A stretch of 64,000 nt of DNA from assembly GCA_947646735.1 (NCBI GenBank), contig CANTFK010000006.1, positions 1 through 64,000 of the forward strand, read 5' to 3'. Below, in pieces: positions 30,021 to 46,054 of the stretch. The stretch is from Peronospora farinosa. Lineage: Eukaryota; Oomycota; Peronosporomycetes; Peronosporales; Peronosporaceae. The first letter of the stretch is position 1. Every line of letters begins with the position of its first letter. The notes under the pieces are model-generated. The model saw only the letters and a list, made by a program, of their open reading frames with translations. It did no database searches and was not told the origin of the DNA. The position numbers and the translations under genes are program-made.

Positions 30021-30488
30021 GTAGTGCCTGCTCGAACAGTACAGCATTGTCTGCATCCTGTGCTTCTTCTGTAGCTTGCTGCTGCGCCAATCTGTTGTCT
30101 CTGACATACGTCCAACGCCACCCAGTTATTATAACTTTAGCTAGCAGCTTTAGAATGCCCCCAATTGATTAATTTAGTAATGAGAGCTAGCTATTCACAA
30201 TAGATGAACATGTCATCTTAGACCTCGTTTTGCATTGAGCCAATTTGATTCGCGGTAGTGCCTGCTCGAACAGTACAGCATTGTCTGCATCCTGTGCTTC
30301 TTCTGTAGCTTGCTGCTGCGCCAATCTGTTGTCTCTGACATACGTCCAACGCCACCCAGTTATTATAACTTTAGCTAGCAGCTTTAGAATGCCCCCAATT
30401 GATTAATTTAGTAATGAGAGCTAGCTATTCACAATAGATGAACATGTCATCTTAGACCTCGTTTTGCATTGAGCCATTTTGATTCGCG
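30021..30488. repeat. 234-bp tandem duplication
   Basis: Positions 30021-30254 and 30255-30488 are identical apart from one base near the end (GAGCCAATTTG versus GAGCCATTTTG). There is no ORF inside. The near identity indicates a recent event or an assembly duplication. Confidence 0.93.
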
Positions 30489-32587: not shown

Positions 32588-33202
32588 TCACTTCCTTAGA
32601 TCGCCTGGATAATCATGATATAGAAGATATGGAAGATATGCTTCGGCCCCTTCTTCATCAGTGATCGTCTTGACATAACCATATGAGAAACGTTCCTTAC
32701 TCAAATAGCGGAAAAACATATGCCGATAAGCCTTATATGTTGCCCCCCCCATTTTGTTGATTTCCATTATTAAGTTTTCGTGTGTTTCGTAAAATTGGAG
32801 TAGGTAAGCAATGAATTTTCCATCCGTATCAATATCTGCTATCTCTTTCAGTTTCTCGATTTTTTTATCGTCTTGTACCATTTTAGCCAAACCATTATGC
32901 TCCTTTAGATATTCCACAAAATCCTCTCTAAATGGGAAAGTGTCAACCGCAACAAAATTATGTATGCTCGATGAAGCCTCTTCAATAGACAAGGTGTCAT
33001 CCGCAATTGAATTCTTTGTGCTCGATGAAGCCTCTTCAATGGACAAGGTGTCATCCGCAATTAAATTTTTTGTGCTCGATGAAGCCCCTCCCAACAACTT
33101 CCCCAAATTTAAACCCCTTTCTTCGCCATCGCCATCAATTACAGCGTTGGTGCTGACGATGGCGACTGCCGTAGCAAGCAGTACGGTGCAATAGAGACGC
33201 AT
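32588..33202 (-). CDS. Secreted effector candidate (RXLR-like, EER without RXLR)
   Basis: ATG 33202 gives 204 residues. Residues 1-20 (MRLYCTVLLATAVAIVSTNA) form a clear signal peptide of the RXLR-effector style. The segment following contains GDGEER at residues 24-29, resembling the dEER element, but no RXLR precedes it. Residues 40-93 consist of three 18-residue repeats of the type ASSSTKNxIADDTLSIEE, the last degenerate. The C-terminal 110 residues are charged and helical (LKEIADIDTDGKFIAYLLQF, YRHMFFRYLSKERF) and may be a WY-type or other effector fold; this is unproven. A consensus core promoter lies 27-41 bp upstream. The role would be secretion during host infection. An upstream in-frame GTG at 33220 is not needed. 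Confidence 0.68.
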   Translation of the reverse strand: MRLYCTVLLATAVAIVSTNAVIDGDGEERGLNLGKLLGGASSSTKNLIADDTLSIEEASSSTKNSIADDTLSIEEASSSIHNFVAVDTFPFREDFVEYLKEHNGLAKMVQDDKKIEKLKEIADIDTDGKFIAYLLQFYETHENLIMEINKMGGATYKAYRHMFFRYLSKERFSYGYVKTITDEEGAEAYLPYLLYHDYPGDLRK

Positions 33203-33228
33203 CTGGTAGAGCTTGTGCACTTGTGGAT

Positions 33229-34160: not shown

Positions 34161-34165
34161 GCATT
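34161..34165. repeat. Target-site duplication GCATT (left)
   Basis: GCATT precedes the left LTR and is repeated at 42015-42019 directly after the right LTR. It proves a single intact insertion event. Confidence 0.9.
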
Positions 34166-34803
34166 TGTAGCGGAGCTGCACAGCTCTTTAGCCAGAGGAA
34201 GACTTTCGGCTGGAAGCCTCTTAGTTCTATAGAAGTAAATATAGTTAAGGCTAAAAGCCACTTAGTTCTAAGGAACTAATTAAACGACTGAAAGTAACCC
34301 TGTTCTAAGGAACTAGGAGAGAGACTTTAGTCAGTCAAGCAATAAGCTTAAGGTTCAGAGAACCAACGCACAGGGTGCAAGAACAAGCTAGAAGCTTAGA
34401 GGTTCAGAGAACCAACGCACGAAGTGCACAAGAGAACAAGTCAGAACGACTTGTGATCTTAAACTCAAAAGGAGAACTGATTTTATTTATGCTTTAAGAT
34501 TTTATGAATAGTCCCACTCTAAGTACCCTCACTAGATTAATTACTATAATAGTAGTTATTATATGCAGACTTTGCTATTGGACGACGTATCGTCTAAACA
34601 TCTGTGTATGATGTACTTAGTACAGCGTTATCGATTATCGAATCCTATCCGATAGGATACGGTATTACCGAATACCGTATCTTTAACGCTTATACTTAAT
34701 ACCTCTCTAAAGAGAACAATCCTAATGCATTATATGCAATAAAAGGAAACTTCAACCGTAAACTTTTGGAATGATGTTACAAGCGTCGTGTAACCCCGTT
34801 ACA
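34166..34803 (-). repeat. 3' LTR of Gypsy family A
   Basis: TGTAGCGGAG...CCCGTTACA on the plus strand. It is nearly identical to the right LTR except for the last ~60 bp (34735-34790), where it resembles the copy at 10260-10329 instead. Confidence 0.93.
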
Positions 34804-34812
34804 CCCTCCCCC
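34804..34812 (-). other. Polypurine tract of Gypsy family A
   Basis: The minus strand reads GGGGGAGGG directly before the LTR start TGTAACGGGG. Confidence 0.8.
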
Positions 34813-34902
34813 ACCAGACTGACGTTCCCATAGAATGTCACTCGACATTTTTCCTCTTAGAGGTAGTGCTTTAGCGAACGCTTAAAACCTCACGGTTTGT
34901 TC

Positions 34903-36198
34903 ATGGCACACAACATGACGCCTCCCGGCAGCGAGTCACAGACTCTTAGGGACCTCATTGGGGACGACCTTGAAGAAGCGGTTGATTACGAAAGTGACAC
35001 CGTCTTTGTGGGACCCGATGGGTCCCCTTTAGCCACCCTCACGGGTGAAGATGACACTCGTCATGCACCGAATCCGTTCCCTGAACGTGGTGCAGCAGAT
35101 GCGCTAACAGCGTTACGTGACCCGCCTGAGGTATCATCAACGGTAACGGTTACCAATCCACTCGACGAGCAGCAACAGCGGTCCATCGACCAAGAGGAAG
35201 GCGCCAAGCGCCGAACGAAGAACATGACGCGGCTGAAGGATCACCGACAGTACAGGTTCAAGCCACCTACGGTGGAAGAACGCCTAAAGGAAGCATCTGG
35301 GCATTCCCTTTCTGGTTGGACCATTGGTCCTGAGGCCATTTCGCCTGAAGATGTTGCCACACGCACGGCACTTCGACAACGATATCTGGAGCCCCATATC
35401 ACTACTCAAAGCCAATACTTGGCACGCCTTAATAGGCAAGTGCGCGGTGCGCCAGTTCCTCCGATGAAGGGTGTTCCCATCCTTCTGTTCGCGGGGGAAA
35501 CCGAGGACGAAGAAGACACGGCTTTCAGCCGCTGGGCGCATTATGCGCGACGTTTAAGCAGCATGTGGTCCCTACGGGCAAGCGCCGATGTGGCAGATAT
35601 CCGACTTGAGCGGAAGATGCGTTATGATTACGCTAAATTGAAGGCCCGGGGAAAATTGAAATCCCAACGAACGCATTATGCGCCTGCTGCCCAGCAGCCC
35701 AATGTTTTGGCTACCCCTGTAGCCGCGAGTTCACGACAGCCCGAGGCCGCTAACCCGCCTACCCTCACCATTACTGGTGAGAAGCGTCAGCGCCAACAGG
35801 CAGACCCTGCGCACGACGCTCAAAAACGTCCACGGCGTATGGGCAGTCCTGCCGAAGGGGAGTCTCAAACTCCCATGAATTCCATGATTCGGGATAACCC
35901 CGCCATTTCACCAGATACTGGTTTTGACCATGGCGGCGACGCTTCTGCAGTAGACGTTCCACATGGAACTGCAGGTTCCCCTGAGCATCGAGCAAAGGAG
36001 GAGGAGGCCGGTGTATCGGCACAAGCTCATGCGGAGCTTGTTCAGGAGGTACGGTCCCTTCGTGAGGAGAGGCAGACGATGAACTCCCGGCTTGCGTCCC
36101 TGGAAGAGAGTCGGACCCGAATGCAGGGTCAGCTTGACATGTTGGCGCAGATGCTTCGTCCCGCGACAATGCCAATGGGCTCGGCGCGAGCGCCTTAA
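34903..36198 (+). CDS. Antisense ORF of Gypsy family A (431 aa, unknown function)
   Basis: From ATG 34903, 99 bp inside the 3' LTR, an open frame of 431 codons runs opposite to pol and overlaps its last 428 bp, including the chromodomain codons. No known domain is recognised. Seen: an acidic N-terminal third (DLIGDDLEEAVDYESDTVF), a basic Arg/Lys stretch (AKRRTKNMTRLKDHRQYRF, residues about 108-127), a Trp-containing central segment (TAFSRWAHYARRLSSMWSL, about 210-228) followed by Lys/Arg-rich sequence, a bipartite-like basic cluster KRQRQQ...KRPRR (about 297-317), and a C-terminal coiled coil (LVQEVRSLREERQTMNSRLA, about 383-425). Its position and layout parallel the ORF at 17076-18521 in family B, although sequences differ. 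Possible roles are accessory, regulatory or nucleic-acid binding; none is shown. Confidence 0.75.
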   Translation: MAHNMTPPGSESQTLRDLIGDDLEEAVDYESDTVFVGPDGSPLATLTGEDDTRHAPNPFPERGAADALTALRDPPEVSSTVTVTNPLDEQQQRSIDQEEGAKRRTKNMTRLKDHRQYRFKPPTVEERLKEASGHSLSGWTIGPEAISPEDVATRTALRQRYLEPHITTQSQYLARLNRQVRGAPVPPMKGVPILLFAGETEDEEDTAFSRWAHYARRLSSMWSLRASADVADIRLERKMRYDYAKLKARGKLKSQRTHYAPAAQQPNVLATPVAASSRQPEAANPPTLTITGEKRQRQQADPAHDAQKRPRRMGSPAEGESQTPMNSMIRDNPAISPDTGFDHGGDASAVDVPHGTAGSPEHRAKEEEAGVSAQAHAELVQEVRSLREERQTMNSRLASLEESRTRMQGQLDMLAQMLRPATMPMGSARAP

Positions 36199-37519
36199 TG
36201 TTTACTTGGGACGGATCCCGATAAGGTTTCAACATGGCGACATAGAACACGGGATGTGTACGCAATTTGCGCGGCAAGTTAAGCGTATACGCTGTGCCTT
36301 TCTTGGCAATGACCTTAAAGGGTCCGATAAATCGTGGGCGCAACTTCGTCTTAAAGACAGCGGATACTACATTGGTAGGTAGATTTTTAGCATTTAATAA
36401 TAATTGGTCTCCGACCTCATAATCATTAATACAACCTCTGCCTTTCGCATCTGCATATTCCTTTTGTTTATCTTGACTATCAGCCATTGCATCTTGCACA
36501 TGTCGTAAGACATTCAGTCGCGTTGCGAGAAACGCATTTTCCTGTTTCTTAACAGTATTAGGGCTGACATCAGCAAGCCGATCGGCAACCTCTCCCCCAC
36601 CAAGCCCTGAACCACTCGGTGGTAGCGTTAACGGAACGCGTGGGTGTGGGTGTGTAAGACCATTCACATATAACGGAGTGTAGCCGGTAGAGGCGTGCAC
36701 GGAGTTATTGAAGGCAAACTCAACTACAGGGAGCATAGCGCTCCAACGCTTAAGCGTTTCAGCACAAACGCTGCGTAGGATATCTTCAACAACGCGATTT
36801 ACGCGTTCAGTTTGATCATCGGTCTGCGGATGATCCGCCGTGGACATGTCCAAACGGGTGCCCAGCACCTGGAAGACGGACTTCCAAAATTTACTCGTAA
36901 AACGAGGATCACGATCAGAAACAATTGCCACTGGCAAGCCATGTTGGCGAAACACCCGATCGATAACCAGCTCCGCTGTACCCACACCATCGATCGAATC
37001 TGGCACAGCCGCTAAGTGAGCCATCTTGCTCAAACGGTCAACAAAGACCACAATACCTGTATTGCCATGCGAATCTTTCGGTAGGCCAAATACAAAGTCC
37101 ATACTAATGGACTCCCAGCACCCAGTGGGAATAGGCAAACTAGCCAGTGGTGCTGCCGAATGGGGCGAGGGTTTCACCCGCTGACACATTTCACACGTAC
37201 GCACATATGTGCTCACCCATTTGTATAATTTGGGCCACCAATAACTTTGGCATACTGCCCCATAGGTCTTTTCACGACCCAAATGACCACCGATGGCGGT
37301 GTCATGTACCTCATAGAGGATACGATGTTTCAGGTCCTCGTCATGAGGAACTACAATACGCGGAGGATCCGCTACATCTGTACGATAGTACAACAGCCCC
37401 TCATCGATAGAATATCGATGGAGGCTTGCACGCAATCGTGCCGACAATTTAATGTCCGAGTCTTTAAACTCCTCACTGCCAAGAGCATGTAGCAACGCTA
37501 TACAGTGATCATCTTTAGC
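35771..37519 (-). CDS. Pol 3' part: integrase with chromodomain (family A)
   Basis: The open frame after a nonsense codon at 37520-37522 encodes the integrase. It has an H2C2 zinc finger (HDTAIGGHLGREKTYG to CEMCQRVK, near 37300), a catalytic core with Asp in MDFVFGLPKD and Asp in IVSDRDPRFTSKFW, and Glu in QTERVNRVVEDILRS. A GPF/Y-like segment RFIGPFKVIAKKGTAYTL lies near 36310 and a C-terminal chromodomain YLVKWRGYPESWNSWEF near 35870. The chromodomain places it among chromoviruses, which target integration to marked chromatin. The last 428 bp also encode the C-terminus of the opposite-strand ORF. The frame probably belonged to one polyprotein with the reverse transcriptase before the stops arose. 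Confidence 0.9.
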   Translation of the reverse strand, partial: AKDDHCIALLHALGSEEFKDSDIKLSARLRASLHRYSIDEGLLYYRTDVADPPRIVVPHDEDLKHRILYEVHDTAIGGHLGREKTYGAVCQSYWWPKLYKWVSTYVRTCEMCQRVKPSPHSAAPLASLPIPTGCWESISMDFVFGLPKDSHGNTGIVVFVDRLSKMAHLAAVPDSIDGVGTAELVIDRVFRQHGLPVAIVSDRDPRFTSKFWKSVFQVLGTRLDMSTADHPQTDDQTERVNRVVEDILRSVCAETLKRWSAMLPVVEFAFNNSVHASTGYTPLYVNGLTHPHPRVPLTLPPSGSGLGGGEVADRLADVSPNTVKKQENAFLATRLNVLRHVQDAMADSQDKQKEYADAKGRGCINDYEVGDQLLLNAKNLPTNVVSAVFKTKLRPRFIGPFKVIAKKGTAYTLNLPRKLRTHPVFYVAMLKPYRDPSQVNIKALAPSPLALSRDEASAPTCQADPAFGSDSLPGTQAGSSSSASPHEGTVPPEQAPHELVPIHRPPPPLLDAQGNLQFHVERLLQKRRRHGQNQYLVKWRGYPESWNSWEFETPLRQDCPYAVDVFERRAQGLPVGADASHQ

Positions 37520-37672: not shown

Positions 37673-40306
37673 CTAGAGGGCCATTCTCTGCGAGAGATGC
37701 GGCGACTGAGTCGCAGTGCGTAACGACGCATGATCGGTATAGATCACAAAAGGCTTTGAGCCCAGCAGATGAACTCTGAATTTGACCAGGGCATACTTCA
37801 TCGCAAGTAGCTCTTTGTCGTGAACTGGATAGTTCTTTTCTGCAGCTTTCAGCTGGCGGAATTCAAAAGCGATTACACGCTCACGGCCTTCATCATCTGA
37901 TTGTAACAGAGCACTGCCAATGGCAAAATCCGATGCGTCACAGACGACGCTAAACGGTCGGTCAGGGTCTGGCAAAGCCAAAATAGGAGCATGTAGAAGG
38001 CTTGCCTTCACTGCTTGAAAAGCATTTTCGTGTTCGGCATGCCAACACCATTCCACATCCTTTTTAAGGAGATTGGATAACGGCCGAGCCATATCAGCGT
38101 AATTTTCGCTATACTTGTGTAAGTAATTGGCAAGGCCAAGCCATTTACACAAGTCCTTCTGAGACTGTGGAACAGGCCAATCGACTATGGCTTTGACTTT
38201 GGCGGGATCCGCTCGTAGTCCTCGCTTCCCAATGAAGCACCCTAGAAAGGGAATTTCTTCGGCCCCGAAGATGCACTTAGAGGCATTAGCATATAACTTA
38301 TTAGTGCGCATGCACTCGAGCACTGCTCGTAAATGAACAATATGGTTCTCAATATCTGACCGACCATGTTCAGCTCGGCTATGGACAAAAATGTCATCAA
38401 AATACGTCTGTGCATAACTTCGATGGGGTCGAAACAATTGCGTCACCAAACGGTTAAACGTAGCCGGAGCATTAGATAGCCCTTGGGGCATCACTAACCA
38501 CTCCCAGAGCATACCGCTCGGAGTACTAACAGCAGTAAGCGGAATATCACTAGCTCGCATGAGCAATTGGTAATAACCATCGACTAAGTCGAGCGCACTG
38601 TACATGGTACAACCGACCATATTGTTCTGAAGAACATCCTTTCTAGGTACTGGCGTCTGTGCAGGTATAGTGGCCGCATTGAGCTTATTATAAGCATGAA
38701 CAATACGCCATTTACCATTTGGTTTCTTAACACAGAAAGTGGGTGTCGAGTGCGGAGATTTACTTTCACGCACCATGCCCGCCGCGTGCTTTGCACGAAA
38801 GAACTCGTCAATGACGTCACACTGTTCTTTGGGTAAAGGCCACTGCCGTGTTACACAGTATTTGGTTCCGGGAACCAAGTCAATTTCATGACGTACGCCC
38901 CTATCAGGTGGTAGAACCGACGGTGGATCGTGACACACCACGTCCTGGAATTCTTTTACCAAAGGATAGTAGGGATCTGAAGGGTCCTTTAGAATAGATG
39001 CCCCACTACGTGCACTTAGTGCCGCTTTGGTATCTTCAAGGACTGTCTCATCGACAAGCGAGGATGAGTTCAGCTCGAGGTTAGGTCGAATGACCACCAT
39101 ATCGGACAGAGCACCTGCCTTCAAGGCCTGATGAAATTCATCCACAGACATTTCGCCTAGCTCTAAAAGAGCATTTAATGATGGGAGGGCCTCAAGGTCA
39201 ACCTCACCATCTACATCACCTGTCACTCCGTTGACCAGGGTGTACAACTGGTCACTGACATTATTATGCGATAAAACAGACGCTTTGCGTCTCGCAGCCG
39301 CCATCTGGCGACGCTGCCGTCTCATTGACGAGACCGTACTCTTCAAAGTACTTGGGATATTATCATCCCCAAGGTCAGCAGACCCCTTGTCATTTACCTG
39401 CCCTATGCGAGGGCCGATGTCATTACCGACACCCAGTGGGTCACTAGTACCAGTGACTTCACTAACAAGGTCATTGACCTTCACTCGCTCTATACGAGAG
39501 CCGATGTCATTACCGACACCCAGTGGGTCACTAGTACCAGTGACTTCACTAACAAGGTCATTGACCTTCACTCGCTCTATACGAGAGCCGATGTCATTAC
39601 CGACATCCAGTAAATCGCATTTACAGCCAATATCACTAACAGTATCACTTAACGGAGTACGTGCCGTTCCACTAAGTGTCATTGAGCTCTGCTCGACACT
39701 ATTATTGTTGACATCGGAGTTTATCAACTCAGACACTCCAATGTCCAGCACATTAACTGAATCAGTTAATGGCTCGCGCCAATAGCACTTTTGTTTTCTA
39801 GCGAAGGTGGGTTCATGACTCTCCAAAGCTTCGCTAGGAACATTGCGCGTTGCACCTAAAGTTTTGGATCTCCAATCGATCCACGGCTCATGGCGTTCCA
39901 GCCAGGCCATACCGAGAATGAGATCATATCTCGAGTCCAAATCTAGGACAAGACAGCGTTCAACGCTATTGAAATCTAAAAATTTCACACCTAAGTTCAA
40001 CGGAACTTTAGGAACGGTGACACGTACACCAGTCGCGAGACGTACGGTTATACTGTCACCCTCTTGCGCTTCCAGCGCCTCAGCATACAGCTGACTCCCC
40101 TCAAGGGAGCGACGTCGGACATAATTCCCTGACGCCCCTGAGTCAATTAAAATTGACCAGGGTTTCTCAAAACCCTTAACGGTTGCCGACACAACCAACA
40201 AGCCTGGCTTGTAATTTTGTTCTATGGGAGCATCCACAGAACCACCTGGGGCTAAGCCCTGTTTACCTTTACCTCCTAAAGATTCAACAGAACTTAGTTC
40301 TTTCCC
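37673..40306 (-). CDS. Pol 5' part: protease, reverse transcriptase, RNase H (family A)
   Basis: The open frame extends upstream of the first in-frame methionine (40237) toward the gag stop. It contains an aspartic protease ([11 protein letters not shown] near 40150, [15 protein letters not shown] near 39900), a spacer with 29-residue repeats, and reverse transcriptase ([19 protein letters not shown] near 38700; catalytic [13 protein letters not shown] near 38390). The RNase H has [18 protein letters not shown] near 37950 and [11 protein letters not shown] near 37730. It ends at a TAG (37673) where the other copy has a different mutation at the same linker. The frame is -1 relative to gag. 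It provides replication enzymes; with the nonsense codons it would lack integrase. Confidence 0.9.
39413..39605 (-). repeat. 87-bp in-frame tandem repeat in pol spacer (two units plus partial)
   Basis: Units begin at 39413, 39500 and 39587. They are the same repeat as at 4447-4815 but with two fewer units. Confidence 0.9.
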
Positions 40307-40323
40307 AGTAGGGCGCCCCGCGC

Positions 40324-41325
40324 CTACTGGGAGTTGACATTTTCCCCTGCGGTGCTCGCCTTTTGGCTAGGAGCAGGGCTTCGGCTTTGCCGATTTGAAC
40401 GTTGCTTTCGCAACGGACAGCTAGGGCGGAGATGCCTAGTGCTTCCGCACATGTAACATCTACGGATGCTACCTTGCTGCTCAGCAGCTTGAAGCTCAGC
40501 TTCTTCAGCATGGCTGAGGTCCATGGGTTCCGCCCTATTAGAGGTATTTGATTGATACCAGGGCAGACCATATCGAGCAGATTTAAAATTGAATTCAGCG
40601 TTAAATGCTACGCTTACTGCCTCCTCAAAAGTTGAAGGCTGGACACGGAAAACTTCCGTCCTGGCGACCCCAGTGCGAAGTCCCTCCATAAAAATGGTTA
40701 CTCGGACTTCCTCTGCCAGTGGGTCCTGCTGCATAGCAGCAATGAGAGTTCTCAACTCTTGGACATAGTCCGACAATTCTTTCTTACCTTGTCGGGTAGC
40801 TAGGAAGCGTGAGCGCACACGATAAGCCTGATTAGGCGGTGCAAACACACAAGTTAATTGCTTTTTAAGCATCTCCCATGTGGGAAATGCAGCATTTACA
40901 GAGACACCGCTCGTTAGAGCCCACTCTCTAGCTCTTCCACCGAGCTTAGAAATGGCCAAGCCAACTCGTTGCTTATCGGATGCAAGCATGGCGGCATCCA
41001 TTTCCATTTCAACTTCTCGGATCCAGAGGAGAAGGTTCTCTCCCTCCTTCCCCTCGAAGGTCTTGACACTTAAAACAAGTGGACGAGCCTTTGGCTCTGC
41101 ATCGGTCACAGGTACCGGAATGTACTGTATAGGCGCGGCTGACGCTGCCTGGTCATGGACCTGCCCGAGGAGCGTTGCCTCATAACGCATAAAGGCCTCA
41201 AGACGAGCATTTAGAACCTCGGGGCCTTGGGCCAAAAGGGCCTCGATTTGATCAGGTCCGACGAACGCAGATAGTTTATCTAAGGCGAGTCGTTGTGCCT
41301 CAGAGAGGTGATTTTGATTCTCCAT
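40324..41325 (-). CDS. Gag of Gypsy family A
   Basis: ATG 41325 gives 333 residues (an in-frame GTG at 41331 is ignored). The central part is a retrotransposon gag/capsid region ([38 protein letters not shown]) and the C-terminus has one CCHC zinc knuckle, [14 protein letters not shown]. It forms the particle and binds RNA. The stop TAG after AGENVNSQ is conserved in the decayed copy at 5520, and pol lies in the -1 frame after a short overlap. Confidence 0.9.
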
Positions 41326-41373
41326 TCTCACAGAGGGTCAGTCTTTAAAGACTCAGGTGTAGGATTGACTACA

Positions 41374-41385: not shown

Positions 41386-42014
41386 TGTAGCGGAGCTGCA
41401 CAGCTCTTTAGCCAGAGGAAGACTTTCGGCTGGAAGCCTCTTAGTTCTATAGAAGTAAATAGAGTTAAGGCTAAAAGCCACTTAGTTCTAAGGAACTAAT
41501 TAAACGACTGAAAGTAACCCTGTTCTAAGGAACTAGGAGAGAGACTTTTAGTCAGTCAAGCAATAAGCTTAAGGTTCAGAGAACCAACGCACAGGGTGCA
41601 AGAACAAGCTAGAAGCTTAGAGGTTCAGAGAACCAACGCACGAAGTGCACAAGAGAACAAGTCAGAACGACTTGTGATCTTAAACTCAAAAGGAGAACTG
41701 ATTTTATTTATGCTTTAAGATTTTATGAATAGTCCCACTCTAAGTACCCTCACTAGATTAATTACTATAATAGTAGTTATTATATGCAGACTTTGCTATT
41801 GGACGACGTATCGTCTAAACATCTGTGTATGATGTACTTAGTACAGCGTTATCGATTATCGAATCCTATCCGATAGGATACGGTATTACCGAATACCGTA
41901 TCTTTAACGCTTATACTTAATACCTCTCTAAAGAGAACAATCCTAATGCATTATATGCAATACAAGGGGAGTTTAACCGTAAACTCCCGGAAACCGTCGT
42001 GTAACCCCGTTACA
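41386..42014 (-). repeat. 5' LTR of Gypsy family A
   Basis: TGTAGCGGAG to CCCGTTACA. It includes nested palindromes (41863-41879 and 41878-41901, arms ATACGGTATT/AATACCGTAT) and, only in this LTR, a perfect hairpin GGGAGTTTA/TAAACTCCC near 41970. Confidence 0.93.
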
Positions 42015-42019
42015 GCATT
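42015..42019. repeat. Target-site duplication GCATT (right)
   Basis: Matches 34161-34165. Confidence 0.9.
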
Positions 42020-42086: not shown

Positions 42087-42137
42087 TTTGATGCCTGTTA
42101 AGCTGTGACCTTCTTACAAGTTTCTCAATCTTTCATT

Positions 42138-43832
42138 ATGGCTATTGAAGACCCTATCACACACGACAACTTAAATCAAAAAAAGACGTTTCTGAGAAGT
42201 ACACAAGACATGATTACTGGTCATTGGACGGTCCCGCCTAAGCACCGGACAGTCGAACAAGATGCGGCTGAAGAGTGGCTTATCACGTGCTACCTCGGCA
42301 ACAACCGGTACTTTTCGCTGCCGTTTCTGCGTTTCACGAGGTGGTATCTCTTCTTCGCCAGCTTTCTGGTGCAATTCTGCATTGGCTCGCTTTACTCGTG
42401 GTCTGTATTCAACAAACCCATTGATTTGCATGTTTACGGTAACGAGAAGGCTGGTCGTGCAGTTGACGCCTTTTACATATCGGTCGGTGTTTTCGGTACA
42501 ACCACAGCAATTATGGGTCCGTGGATCGAACGCCGTGGACCCCGTGCTGGGGTGGTCCTTGGTACTTCATCCTTCCTCATTGGCAATATAATCGTAGGTA
42601 TTGGCGTGTACTACAAGGCGATTGCAGCCATTTACATTGGTTACGGCATTTTCTGTGGCTTTGGCATGGGTCTCTGCTACATTTCTCCCGTGTCGACGTT
42701 GCAGAAATGGTTTCCGGACTACCGTGGCACTGCTGCCGGCTTTGCAGTGGGTGGGTATGGAGCCGGATCGGTCGTGTGGGCCAAGGTCTATCTTCCGTGC
42801 ATTGATGCGATTGGTTTGTCGTCAACATTCATTCTCATCGGTTGCGTGATGGCTTTTGCCATGTACATGTCTGCTCTCGTATTACGCTCACCTCCCTTCG
42901 GTTTCGTGGTGAGTGGACTCAATATCCATGGAGAAGAAGTCGACAAAGCTGATGAAGCCATGCCCCTTGGCGATAAAGTCAGTCCTCACGAGTACGAGTC
43001 CATCCCGATGACGACCAAACAAGGTGTCCAAAAGACTGTGGATTTTACCCCCGCTACGGAAACGTTGATTCGCAATCTCACGCTAATTGATGCCATCAAG
43101 ACGCCAGACTTCGTGTGCATGTACATTATGTTTTTTGGAAATCAGCTCTACGGTCTCATCGTGCTGTCTAAGCTCTCCAGTATGTGCACCGATATATTTG
43201 ACAAGTCTGCCAATCAAGCTTCGGACATCGTATCTATCAACGGTGTATTCAACTGCTGCGGTCGCTTGGTGTTTCCGCTCCTGTCCGACGTCTTCGTGCG
43301 GAAAATCAAAATGGAACACGCTTTCGCGCGTAAATGCTTGTATTTTTACGCGCTAGCGTCGCAGGCAGTTATCCTCGGCACAATCCCGATTATTATGCGC
43401 AACAACAACTATTCTGCATTTGTGGCTGAAGTGTTCATCCTGACAGCAAGCTACGGTGGTGGGTTTGGTACAATTCCGGTTTTTTTAACCGACATGTTCG
43501 GCGCCTTTAATATCGGTGCTATGCATGGATTGATCCTGACGGCGTGGTCGATCGGTGGTGTTGTGGGAGGTATCACGTTTAACAACACGTACAGTGACCA
43601 GATCGCGGACGGTTGGGACATCCGTGAAGCGTATATCTACAGTGTTCGCCGTATATTGGTCATTGTGATCGTTGGCTTCATGCTTCTCTTTTTAGTACGT
43701 ACCAAAGGCGCCGATCGGTTTGCTCCAGGCTACCGCCTTAGCATCTTTGGAAGACGCGTTATCAACATCAAAGGTAAACAGGAGATAATGAAGGAGGAGC
43801 CGCTCATGATGCAGCGTAGTAACCCGACTTAA
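42138..43832 (+). CDS. Major facilitator transporter, OFA-like, copy 1
   Basis: ATG 42138 gives a 564-residue, intronless polytopic membrane protein; the longer frame upstream begins with GTG. About 12 hydrophobic segments are seen, with an N-terminal cytosolic stretch and a long central loop (residues about 265-320). Motifs typical of the oxalate:formate antiporter-like branch are present: FCIGSLYSWSVFNKP in helix 1, GPWIERRGPRAGVVLG between helices 2 and 3, GFGMGLCYISPVSTLQKWFP in helix 4-5, and SYGGGFGTIPVFLTDMFG in a late helix. The substrate is unknown; carboxylates are a guess from the family. It is about two-thirds identical by eye to the next gene, a tandem duplicate. A Gypsy LTR lies immediately upstream. 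Confidence 0.88.
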   Translation: MAIEDPITHDNLNQKKTFLRSTQDMITGHWTVPPKHRTVEQDAAEEWLITCYLGNNRYFSLPFLRFTRWYLFFASFLVQFCIGSLYSWSVFNKPIDLHVYGNEKAGRAVDAFYISVGVFGTTTAIMGPWIERRGPRAGVVLGTSSFLIGNIIVGIGVYYKAIAAIYIGYGIFCGFGMGLCYISPVSTLQKWFPDYRGTAAGFAVGGYGAGSVVWAKVYLPCIDAIGLSSTFILIGCVMAFAMYMSALVLRSPPFGFVVSGLNIHGEEVDKADEAMPLGDKVSPHEYESIPMTTKQGVQKTVDFTPATETLIRNLTLIDAIKTPDFVCMYIMFFGNQLYGLIVLSKLSSMCTDIFDKSANQASDIVSINGVFNCCGRLVFPLLSDVFVRKIKMEHAFARKCLYFYALASQAVILGTIPIIMRNNNYSAFVAEVFILTASYGGGFGTIPVFLTDMFGAFNIGAMHGLILTAWSIGGVVGGITFNNTYSDQIADGWDIREAYIYSVRRILVIVIVGFMLLFLVRTKGADRFAPGYRLSIFGRRVINIKGKQEIMKEEPLMMQRSNPT

Positions 43833-44284
43833 TGGCTGATCGAGTGATGATAAAAGAGCAATGTACGTATTCCTAGTGTAGATCATGCATCAGGAATTAT
43901 TTGGGCGAACTTGAATTTACACGTTTGGTTTGTAAGTCATAAGCTTGAAAGCCATACACTGCTACAGGTTACTCGAAGAGGAGCAGGTAAAACTAGAACC
44001 CAGCTGCTATAGTTAAAGGACACGAACCATATATACATGCACAGTATTCATTGGCAATGTGAAAGATAGACCTCAATGTAGATTGTTGTCATCATTCCGA
44101 CAATTCCACAAGATTAAGCTTTACTTTGAAGTAGGTGCACTAGGAGGATCTGACGAAGAATCGCCTTTGTTCTGGTCGGGTCTCTGATCTTTTTTTTCAC
44201 TTTCTGGATTCAGCGTTCGCATGGAGCTTGCCATCTGGTTGTTGTAAACTGTTGAGTGTAAGGTACCAAGACATTTAGCATTCT
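43833..44284. other. Intergenic between tandem transporters
   Basis: No ORF or repeat recognised. It holds the 3' end of transporter 1 and the promoter of transporter 2. Confidence 0.5.
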
Positions 44285-44292
44285 TCATTTCA
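44285..44292 (+). promoter_or_regulatory. Oomycete initiator-like element of transporter 2
   Basis: TCATTTCA matches the TCATTTSY-type initiator. Its location supports ATG 44399 rather than the first in-frame codon at 44300 as start. Confidence 0.5.
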
Positions 44293-44398
44293 CGAGCTCT
44301 TGATTAAGGTCCTTGTCGTTTACGGAAAACAAGGGTCATATAGCCCTACTGTTCTAAAGCCATTTATCGTCATTCATATAACGTCCACGACAGATGAG

Positions 44399-46054
44399 AT
44401 GAAGAAATCCTATGTTCAAAACATTCAAGCGAAAATCGCAAAACACTGGACAATGCCTATGAATTCTTGCTCACCGGAGCAGTATGATGCCGAAGAATGG
44501 CTTTTTACCTTTTACCTGGGAAATGATCGTTATTACTCGTCGCACTGCCTTCGTTTTTCGCGATGGTATCTCTTCATCGCGAGTTTTCTGGTGCAGTTCT
44601 GCATCGGTTCACTCTATTCCTGGTCAGTTTTCAATAAGCCCATCGATAATCATGTCTACAATGACGCGAAGGCTGGCAATGCTGTGAATGCGTTTTACAT
44701 TGCAGTAGGCATTTTCGGCACAACGACAGCTATCATGGGTCCCTGGATCGAACGCAACGGCCCGCGCAACGGTGTTGTGCTGGGTACGTCGTCATTTCTC
44801 ATGGGTCACGGAGTTGTGGCCATCGGCGTTGCGTACAAGGCTATTGCTGCAGTGTACGTCGGTTATGGTCTGTTTTGCGGATTCGGCATGGGTCTTTGCT
44901 ACATCGCTCCGATATCAGCGTTGCAAAAGTGGTTTCCAGATTATCGTGGCACAGCGGCAGGCTTTGCTGTTGCAGGGTATGGCGCCGGAGCTGTTGTATG
45001 GGCAAAAGTCTATCGACCATGCATTGAAACTGTTGGAGTTTCGTCGACTTTCTTAGTTGTTGGCGGTGTAATGGCTAGCACGATGTACTTGTGCGCTATT
45101 GTGCTGCGCACGCCTCACCTCGACTTTACCGTTGGTGGACTTAACATTCATGGCGAAGTGGTAGACGACCATGGGACGGCGACAGACACTGTGGAGCTAA
45201 AAGGGTGCTACGAGTCTGCTGGATCCGACAATGATATTGATTTTATCATTAGTACAAATGCCCAGGTGCGCAAGCTGTCGTTGATCGACGCTTTCAGGAC
45301 ACCAGACTTCATATGCATGTACCTTATGTTCTTTGCGAATCAGATCTACGGGCTGGTCGTGCTATCCAAACTTTCCAACATGTGCACCGACATCTTTGGT
45401 CGAACAGGCGATGAAGCGGCTAACATCGTGTCGATAAATGGCGTGTTTAACTGCTTCGGTCGACTTTTCTTCTCCCTGGCATCGGATGTCGTTGCTCGTT
45501 ATTGCAATATCGAGCACTCGTTTGCGCGCAAGTGCGTATTTTATACGACCTTGGTCCTGCAGCTTGTCATTGTAGGCACAACGCCAATGTTGATTCGGAA
45601 CAATCAGTACACGGCTTTCGTGGCGGAGATTTTTATTCTTACAACTAGCTATGGTGGGGGCTTCGGCACAATCCCGGCCTTCCTCACGGATATGTTTGGC
45701 GCCTTTAACATAGGTGCAACGCATGGACTAATTCTGACGGCATGGTCATTTGGGGGCGTTGTTGGTGGCATCAGTTTCAACAACCTTTACAGCAGCAAGA
45801 TCGAAGCCGGAGTCTCTACCAGTGAGGCTTACATCTCGACTGCAAACGACATTTTCATTATCATTCTGGTAGGCTTGGTACTGTTGTTTTTTGTCCGCAC
45901 GAACCCGATGGATCGATTTGAGCCTGGCTACCACTTCAGCATCTACGGCAGACGAATTATCAACATCAAAGCCAAAGAAAAGCTTCCGAAAGAAGATTTA
46001 TTACCTTCAGAACATCTGAAAAACGATTCTAGTTTTGTACTTGCAGAAGAATGA
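44399..46054 (+). CDS. Major facilitator transporter, OFA-like, copy 2
   Basis: From ATG 44399 the protein has 551 residues, no introns and about 12 membrane segments. It shares with copy 1 the blocks FCIGSLYSWSVFNKPID, GPWIERNGPRNGVVLG, GFGMGLCYIAPISALQKWFP, FARKCVF and TSYGGGFGTIPAFLTDMFG, and the C-terminal RTNPMDRFEPGYHFSIYGRR. The in-frame extension 44300-44398 begins with a non-ATG codon and lies at the predicted transcription start, so it is excluded. Function is transport across the plasma or another membrane; the substrate is not determinable. Together with copy 1 and the pseudogene at 30540-31760 it shows local expansion of the family. Confidence 0.88.
   Translation: MKKSYVQNIQAKIAKHWTMPMNSCSPEQYDAEEWLFTFYLGNDRYYSSHCLRFSRWYLFIASFLVQFCIGSLYSWSVFNKPIDNHVYNDAKAGNAVNAFYIAVGIFGTTTAIMGPWIERNGPRNGVVLGTSSFLMGHGVVAIGVAYKAIAAVYVGYGLFCGFGMGLCYIAPISALQKWFPDYRGTAAGFAVAGYGAGAVVWAKVYRPCIETVGVSSTFLVVGGVMASTMYLCAIVLRTPHLDFTVGGLNIHGEVVDDHGTATDTVELKGCYESAGSDNDIDFIISTNAQVRKLSLIDAFRTPDFICMYLMFFANQIYGLVVLSKLSNMCTDIFGRTGDEAANIVSINGVFNCFGRLFFSLASDVVARYCNIEHSFARKCVFYTTLVLQLVIVGTTPMLIRNNQYTAFVAEIFILTTSYGGGFGTIPAFLTDMFGAFNIGATHGLILTAWSFGGVVGGISFNNLYSSKIEAGVSTSEAYISTANDIFIIILVGLVLLFFVRTNPMDRFEPGYHFSIYGRRIINIKAKEKLPKEDLLPSEHLKNDSSFVLAEE

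What the first reader, a model, noticed from the sequence alone, without database searches (positions are those of the whole stretch)
34903..36198. Long ORF on the strand opposite to gag-pol in a near-intact Gypsy chromovirus
A 431-codon ORF starts 99 bp inside the 3' LTR and is antisense to pol, overlapping its last 428 bp including the chromodomain codons, so both strands are coding there. The protein has basic patches and a C-terminal coiled coil but no known domain. Extra antisense genes exist in a few plant LTR elements, but I know of none described for oomycete chromoviruses.
Basis: partly seen in the sequence, partly recalled or inferred. Interest (0 to 1): 0.78.

Follow-up and report, generated by a model that had tools for sequence, protein, structure and literature searches.

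The report
Conserved antisense gene in oomycete retrotransposons
A jumping gene of a downy-mildew relative carries a hidden, evolutionarily maintained extra gene written backwards over the end of its main gene, and the same arrangement seems to recur in related water moulds, so it very probably makes a real accessory protein whose job is not yet known.

Summary
The antisense ORF is real and under selection. It is on the + strand. The conserved start is ATG 34915 (66 of 70 copies; upstream ATG 34903 is private to this copy), giving 427 aa and ending at 36198. It begins 111 bp inside the 3' LTR edge of a 7.85-kb Ty3/Gypsy element with a chromodomain, 5-bp target duplication and 98.8% identical LTRs. 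Its last 428 bp lie opposite the pol C-terminus and chromodomain. In 70 genomic copies, variants shared by 5 or more copies show an N/S ratio 0.18 of neutral in the ORF-only part, like pol (0.17); private variants are neutral (1.02). The other five frames are full of stops. Homologous proteins exist in Peronospora, Hyaloperonospora, Albugo and Phytophthora. A codon-compatibility test shows that ORF and pol proteins from other oomycetes fit one DNA read on both strands in the same phase (up to 156/158 residues; control scores at most 21). The chromodomain faces a disordered ORF stretch, and the ORF coiled coil faces a pol linker. I found no known domain or fold. Most likely it is an antisense accessory regulatory protein, analogous to plant antisense aORFs and retroviral HBZ but without detected sequence relation. 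Expression and function are untested.

The parts
34915..36198 (+). Antisense accessory gene, 427 aa (conserved start ATG 34915; the private upstream ATG 34903 would give 431)
34915..35151 (+). Codons 1-79: acidic, predicted disordered N-terminus (net charge -13)
35152..35664 (+). Codons 80-250: confidently predicted core (10-residue means of pLDDT 76-94 from residue 81); highest mean pairwise identity (0.56) among eight homologous proteins
35665..36018 (+). Codons 251-368: mostly predicted disordered linker with basic patches KRQR (290) and KRPRR (304); its second part lies opposite the chromodomain
36019..36156 (+). Codons 369-414: single long helix, coiled-coil-like, opposite the pol linker
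35771..36198 (.). Overlap in which both strands code; ORF codon position 1 pairs with pol position 1, 2 with 3, 3 with 2
35813..35968 (-). Chromodomain codons of pol (residues 510-561 of the integrase part)
35771..37519 (-). Pol, integrase part: H2C2, rve core, SH3-like, chromodomain
37673..40366 (-). Pol, protease / reverse transcriptase / RNase H part; separated from the integrase part by two in-frame stops in this copy
40324..41337 (-). Gag frame, with a CCHC-type knuckle near its end (motif read by eye), overlapping the pol frame
34166..34803 (-). 3' LTR (638 bp)
41386..42014 (-). 5' LTR (629 bp)
34161..34165 (.). Target-site duplication GCATT (partner at 42015-42019)
34804..34815 (-). Polypurine tract next to the 3' LTR (reads CCCTCCCCCACC on +)
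   Evidence: read by eye
34838..34854 (+). Candidate antisense core promoter (INR+FPR-like), 77 bp before ATG 34915; weak evidence

Best explanation
Shown: the ORF is a real, selectively maintained protein-coding gene of a chromodomain-bearing Ty3/Gypsy family. It lies antisense between pol and the 3' LTR and overlaps the chromodomain end of pol. The same sense/antisense overlap is inferred, from protein pairs, in other oomycete genera. Inferred: it is transcribed from its own antisense promoter at or beside the 3' LTR and makes a self-associating nuclear protein. That protein would have an acidic N-terminus, a compact core that binds a partner or nucleic acid, basic patches, and a C-terminal coiled coil for oligomerisation. 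It would regulate the element's own activity (transcription, RNA fate or post-integration state), as proposed for plant antisense aORFs (PMC7264820) and as I recall for retroviral HBZ.
For: Selection: N/S ratio relative to neutral in the ORF-only part is 1.02 for private variants, 0.60 for those in 2-4 copies and 0.18 for those in 5 or more (25 N: 54 S, no stops; Fisher p=3e-11), the same course as pol (1.05, 0.60, 0.17). The same DNA scored in the sham phase gives 4.0. Frame: 0.39 stops per copy against 7.3-18.0 in the other five frames. Overlap: pol lies opposite in 69 of 69 other copies fetched. For variants in 5 or more copies the ORF frame in the overlap is more constrained than a sham ORF phase in pol-only DNA (p=5e-4), clearest at the coiled coil (p=3e-5). 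Other species: 61 proteins at E<=1 among the 7996 candidates scored; those with a named source are all oomycetes. Mirror test: P0004/P0066 156 of 158 residues, P0015/P0068 156 of 158, P0007/P0070 154 of 155, P0055/P0081 163 of 168; scores 153-158 against at most 14, 11 and 21 in three control sets of 64. Albugo pair 66 of 83, score 49, 60 shuffles at most 11. Architecture: core, helix; charge, basic patches. Promoter-like site.
Against: No transcript, peptide, localisation or binding data were available. The core matches no solved structure, so no biochemical activity is indicated, and 'nuclear' rests only on short basic patches. The promoter-like site has one INR mismatch, and only 23 of 70 copies fit the loosened INR+FPR pattern. 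In the overlap the ORF ratio is 0.87 for variants in 5 or more copies, not below 1 on its own, and 2.31 for those in 2-4 copies, five of them stops; 17 of 70 copies have a stop there. Opposite the chromodomain the ORF frame is no more constrained than the sham (p=0.62). One search ranked copies by protein score, which favours intact frames: two of 40 copies found by DNA (C7, C267) are missing from it. Of the first 42 pol rows, 34 have an ORF row opposite; C7 has the region at DNA level and seven are unresolved. The Phytophthora pair of the mirror test is short (23 of 26, score 20), no better than the worst control (21), though above its own shuffles (at most 11).
Confidence: 0.5

Rival explanations
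1. Same conserved gene, but the protein acts in particle assembly or in the pre-integration complex: it binds gag, RNA or integrase and helps nuclear entry or target choice rather than regulating expression.
For: Maintained as strongly as pol, as expected of a core transposition factor; basic patches and a helix that could oligomerise; it appears to have stayed over the integrase chromodomain across genera.
Against: Profile comparison with the element's gag gives nothing (probability 0.3%). Antisense placement means it is not made from the genomic RNA that supplies gag-pol, so its supply would have to be coordinated separately.
Confidence: 0.25
2. Same conserved gene, but the protein counters host silencing (RNA interference or heterochromatin), like a viral suppressor.
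For: Most small RNAs in P. infestans data sets came from LTR retrotransposons (passages of PMC3522703). An antisense transcript would itself feed dsRNA, so a self-protection protein is plausible. No enzymatic fold matched.
Against: No direct evidence; no Pfam family above its cut-off for the window protein, and no library of suppressors was searched.
Confidence: 0.17
3. The antisense transcript matters, not the protein: it is a regulatory RNA and the open frame is a by-product.
For: Antisense non-coding RNAs are known in retrotransposons such as micropia (PMC7264820).
Against: Codon-level purifying selection, no stop among variants shared by 5 or more copies and amino-acid conservation across genera point to a protein.
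Confidence: 0.03
4. Artefact: the frame is open by chance or because pol constrains the other strand.
For: The overlap frame is partly shaped by pol (opposite the chromodomain, 14 N: 2 S in the ORF frame, no better than the sham phase, p=0.62).
Against: Two thirds of the ORF lies outside pol and is the most strongly selected part. ORF phase in pol-only DNA has 7.9 stops per 426 nt; 1000 shuffles reach at most 290 codons.
Confidence: 0.01

Closest known systems
Antisense additional ORFs between pol and 3' LTR (aORF-3R) of plant Gypsy elements: maize Grande gene23, rice RIRE2, Silene Retand ORF4, bean PvRetro13
   Same: Antisense to gag-pol, next to the 3' LTR, in most copies, conserved about as well as other element proteins; Grande's has its own promoter and a nuclear product (PMC7264820, parts 1 and 2 of 3 read; PMC11963269, passages).
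   Different: Different host kingdom; no TRP28 (PF04195) or SMC match. Here the gene overlaps the chromodomain end of pol; the word 'overlap' does not occur in PMC11963269, and the parts of PMC7264820 that I read describe none overlapping pol.
Boty of Botrytis cinerea / Sclerotinia (fungal element with an antisense ORF)
   Different: Sequence not compared here; PMC7264820 gives its function as unknown.
HBZ / APH-2 of HTLV-1/2
   Same: Antisense gene; HTLV has an antisense promoter inside the 3' LTR (PMC7264820) and HBZ is nuclear (PMC11963269 passages). The comparison of layout (acidic N-terminus, basic patches, C-terminal zipper) uses HBZ features that I recall.
   Different: No bZIP family found; the sequences were not compared directly.
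Oomycete Chronos LTR elements (PMC5348765)
   Same: Oomycete LTR elements with a chromodomain (passages).
   Different: Chronos has an extra RNase H, none of which was found here. That paper's main text has no occurrence of 'antisense', 'additional ORF' or 'extra ORF'.
Sola1-1 of Ectocarpus (brown alga)
   Same: Transposon accessory gene on the opposite strand in another stramenopile (PMC12477816, passages).
   Different: A transposase-carrying DNA element; the gene encodes a protein with ParB-like and methyltransferase domains.

Membership tests
Antisense aORF-3R class | Coding region antisense to gag-pol between pol and 3' LTR | tested here: met
   it also runs 428 bp into pol
Antisense aORF-3R class | Present in most copies of the family | tested here: met
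   pol opposite in 69 of 69 fetched ORF copies other than the window's; ORF row opposite in 34 of the first 42 rows (pol matches over 1-574), one more by DNA, 7 unresolved; the other 37 rows were not tallied
Antisense aORF-3R class | Conservation comparable to other element proteins | tested here: met
   0.18 against 0.17 for pol
Antisense aORF-3R class | Own antisense promoter and transcript | tested here: inconclusive
   only a promoter-like site; no RNA data
Antisense aORF-3R class | Nuclear product | not testable with these tools
   basic patches only
Retand type aORF | TRP28 domain PF04195 | tested here: not met
   not among the 23 families matched at E<=1 by 31 members
HBZ / APH-2 | bZIP domain | tested here: not met
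   no bZIP family among the 23 matched at E<=1 by 31 members; one weak leucine-zipper family, Lzipper-MIP1, E=0.25 in one member
Chromovirus (Ty3/Gypsy) | Chromodomain at the C-terminus of integrase | tested here: met
   PF00385 E=3.5e-12, residues 510-561
Chromovirus (Ty3/Gypsy) | RT in the chromovirus clade | not tested
   no RT tree was built
Chronos | Additional RNase H | tested here: inconclusive
   only RT_RNaseH and RT_RNaseH_2 at one place; the stretch between the two pol pieces was not scanned
Env-like third gene | Sense orientation to pol | tested here: not met
   gene is antisense

The most novel reading that the evidence does not exclude
Oomycete chromodomain retrotransposons have carried an HBZ-like antisense regulator since before Albugo and the downy mildews separated. 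The regulator and the element's chromatin-targeting domain share one stretch of DNA, with folded parts alternating between the strands. The antisense protein controls the element, and neither gene can be lost or recombined without breaking the other.
Probability: 0.25. Interest if true: 0.8.

Novelty: new variant of a known kind. Interest (0 to 1): 0.62.

Why it matters
Antisense accessory genes of LTR elements are a small, poorly understood class described mainly in plants. This adds a case in oomycetes with a protein family for which I found no known domain. It also has a feature that I saw in none of the sources read: a long overlap with the integrase chromodomain that appears to persist across genera. 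Both frames are testable in the overlap, so it is a natural experiment in double-coding eukaryotic DNA. Relatives now sit in databases as 'uncharacterized', 'unnamed' or 'hypothetical' proteins of downy mildews, Albugo and Phytophthora, so recognising them as element genes would also clean up annotation of plant-pathogen genomes.

Full report
On the + strand an open frame runs to a stop at 36196-36198, with ATGs at 34903 and 34915. The element around it lies on the - strand: 5' LTR 41386-42014, gag 41337-40324, pol 40366-37673 and 37519-35771, polypurine tract beside the 3' LTR, 3' LTR 34166-34803, and target duplication GCATT on both sides. The LTRs are 98.8% identical over 600 aligned positions, so the insertion is probably recent. 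Pol has an H2C2 finger, rve core, SH3-like domain and chromodomain. This copy is not fully intact: two in-frame stops separate the RNase H part from the integrase part, and L002-L008, the seven other copies printed, do not have them.

Copies. A six-frame protein search of the own genome gave 100 matches from 97 scored of 656 candidates. The upstream ATG 34903 is in the window copy only (ACG in the other 69), while ATG 34915 is kept in 66 of 70. The conserved gene is therefore 427 codons, matching the P. effusa protein P0001. Outside the overlap this frame has 0.39 stops per copy and 50 of 70 copies have none; the other five frames have 7.3-18.0. In the overlap it has 0.34 per copy and 53 of 70 have none. 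ranks by protein score and so favours intact frames. A DNA search, which scored 40 of 278 candidates, gave 40 copies; 38 of them appear, and 24 of the 40 have a full-length frame without stops there. Starting from pol instead, 34 of the first 42 rows have an ORF row opposite, one more has the region by DNA, and seven are unresolved.

Selection. I sorted variants by how many of the 70 copies share them, using the window copy as background. Private variants show neutral N/S (1.02 of expectation), as expected for dead copies. Variants in 5 or more copies, which mostly arose in active lineages, show 0.18 (25 N, 0 stops, 54 S). The contrast has Fisher p=3e-11 within one set of copies, so choosing copies by protein score does not readily explain it. 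Pol-only DNA behaves the same way (1.05 to 0.17). As a sham, the pol phase in ORF-only DNA gives 4.0 and the ORF phase in pol-only DNA gives 4.6. In the overlap, variants in 5 or more copies give 0.46 for pol and 0.87 for the ORF. The ORF value is not below 1, but it is well below the 4.6 that pol constraint alone gives in that phase (p=5e-4). Against this, variants in 2-4 copies give 2.31 for the ORF in the overlap, five of them stops. A first run with another background and 62 copies gave the same picture.

Division of the overlap. Opposite the chromodomain, variants in 5 or more copies are 2 N: 14 S in pol and 14 N: 2 S in the ORF. Opposite the ORF coiled coil they are 21 N: 6 S in pol and 15 N: 12 S in the ORF (p=8e-5 between the two parts for pol, 0.045 for the ORF; ORF at the coiled coil against the sham phase p=3e-5). 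Among eight ORF and eight pol proteins (28 comparisons each), mean identity opposite the chromodomain is 0.83 (pol) and 0.54 (ORF); at the coiled coil it is 0.31 (pol) and 0.46 (ORF). So each folded part sits opposite a loosely constrained part of the other protein. In the chromodomain stretch the ORF frame shows no constraint beyond the sham (p=0.62), and its conservation there may be a shadow of pol.

Other species. A protein search returned 61 relatives at E<=1 from the 7996 candidates it scored; those with a named source are all oomycetes (Peronospora effusa, P. matthiolae, P. destructor, Hyaloperonospora arabidopsidis and H. brassicae, Albugo laibachii, Phytophthora palmivora), and others come from unnamed contigs. 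A pol search returned 23 relatives. Without their DNA I asked whether an ORF protein and a pol protein can be read from one DNA on opposite strands in the window's phase. The window pair scores 140 of 140 in that phase and 5-6 in the other two. I ran 552 pairs: 23 ORF proteins (the window's and 22 of 61 relatives) by 24 pol proteins. Their median score is 45, and 526 score 12 or more. The best are 156 of 158 residues (P0004/P0066 and P0015/P0068, the latter pol from Hyaloperonospora brassicae), 154 of 155 (P0007/P0070) and 163 of 168 (P0055/P0081). Controls of 64 pairs each have medians 9, 7 and 5 and maxima 14 (shuffled), 11 and 21 (other phases), so single scores of 12-21 carry no weight. 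H. brassicae ORF with H. brassicae pol gives 128 of 153, and A. laibachii ORF with A. candida pol 66 of 83. P. palmivora ORF with P. idaei pol gives only 23 of 26 (score 20), because the ORF protein ends early; this one is suggestive at best. Shuffles for the six pairs reach at most 13. The arrangement is thus probably older than the split of Albugo from downy mildews, unless elements moved between hosts.

Protein. AlphaFold2 on 31 sequences gives a confident core (codons 80-250) and a C-terminal helix (369-414), the rest mostly disordered; the core alone gives mean pLDDT 82.9. No domain, PDB sequence or fold match of weight was found. The N-terminus is acidic and basic patches KRQR and KRPRR lie at 290 and 304.

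Expression. The 111 bp between LTR and start hold an INR+FPR-like site at 34838-34854 on the + strand. The published motifs are YCAYTYY and MWTTTNC, with start sites 32-144 nt before the ATG (PMC3599244, passages). The site has one INR mismatch; the 64-kb window has 2 such hits against 0.61 expected, and its FPR half varies among copies (23 of 70 fit a loosened pattern). I looked for it after reading the sequence, so I count it as a hint only.

Interpretation and novelty. The class (antisense accessory ORF between pol and 3' LTR) is known in plants and Botrytis (PMC7264820; PMC11963269). This gene shares the class's layout, copy frequency and selection level, but neither a TRP28 domain nor a bZIP was found. 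New here, as far as my searches reach, are the host group, the protein family and the overlap with the chromodomain that recurs across genera. That it is a conserved protein-coding gene I hold at about 0.97; that it is a nuclear regulator of the element at about 0.5, with a particle or integration role and an anti-silencing role as the live rivals.

Noticed in passing
39387-39647 (- strand, inside pol between protease and RT): Three tandem 87-bp repeats in frame (29 residues each) in the pol linker, the second and third copies 91% and 70% identical to the first; possible length variation between copies.
   Followed up: no
40324-40366: Gag and pol open frames overlap by 43 bp in different phases, suggesting a frameshift between gag and pol.
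   Followed up: no
32588-33220 (- strand): 210-aa ORF with a hydrophobic N-terminus (by eye) and three 54-bp repeats at 32920-33081; looks like a secreted protein of unknown function.
   Followed up: no
42102-43832 and 44279-46054 (+ strand): Two neighbouring, similar membrane-transporter-like ORFs (major-facilitator type by eye); probably a tandem duplicate pair beside the element.
   Followed up: no
30021-30488: Perfect tandem duplication of 234 bp.
   Followed up: no
L071 (G000:C58:176320-176915): Divergent relative (52% identical over 187 residues) with the antisense ORF open (440 aa) while the pol frame opposite has stop codons and a degraded chromodomain.
   Followed up: partly
G000:C55:311027, C273:337450, C183:581031, C243:127643, C215:97678, C189:201541, C52:69046: Pol copies matching over the full query but with no ORF row; they may lack or have broken the antisense gene.
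   Followed up: no
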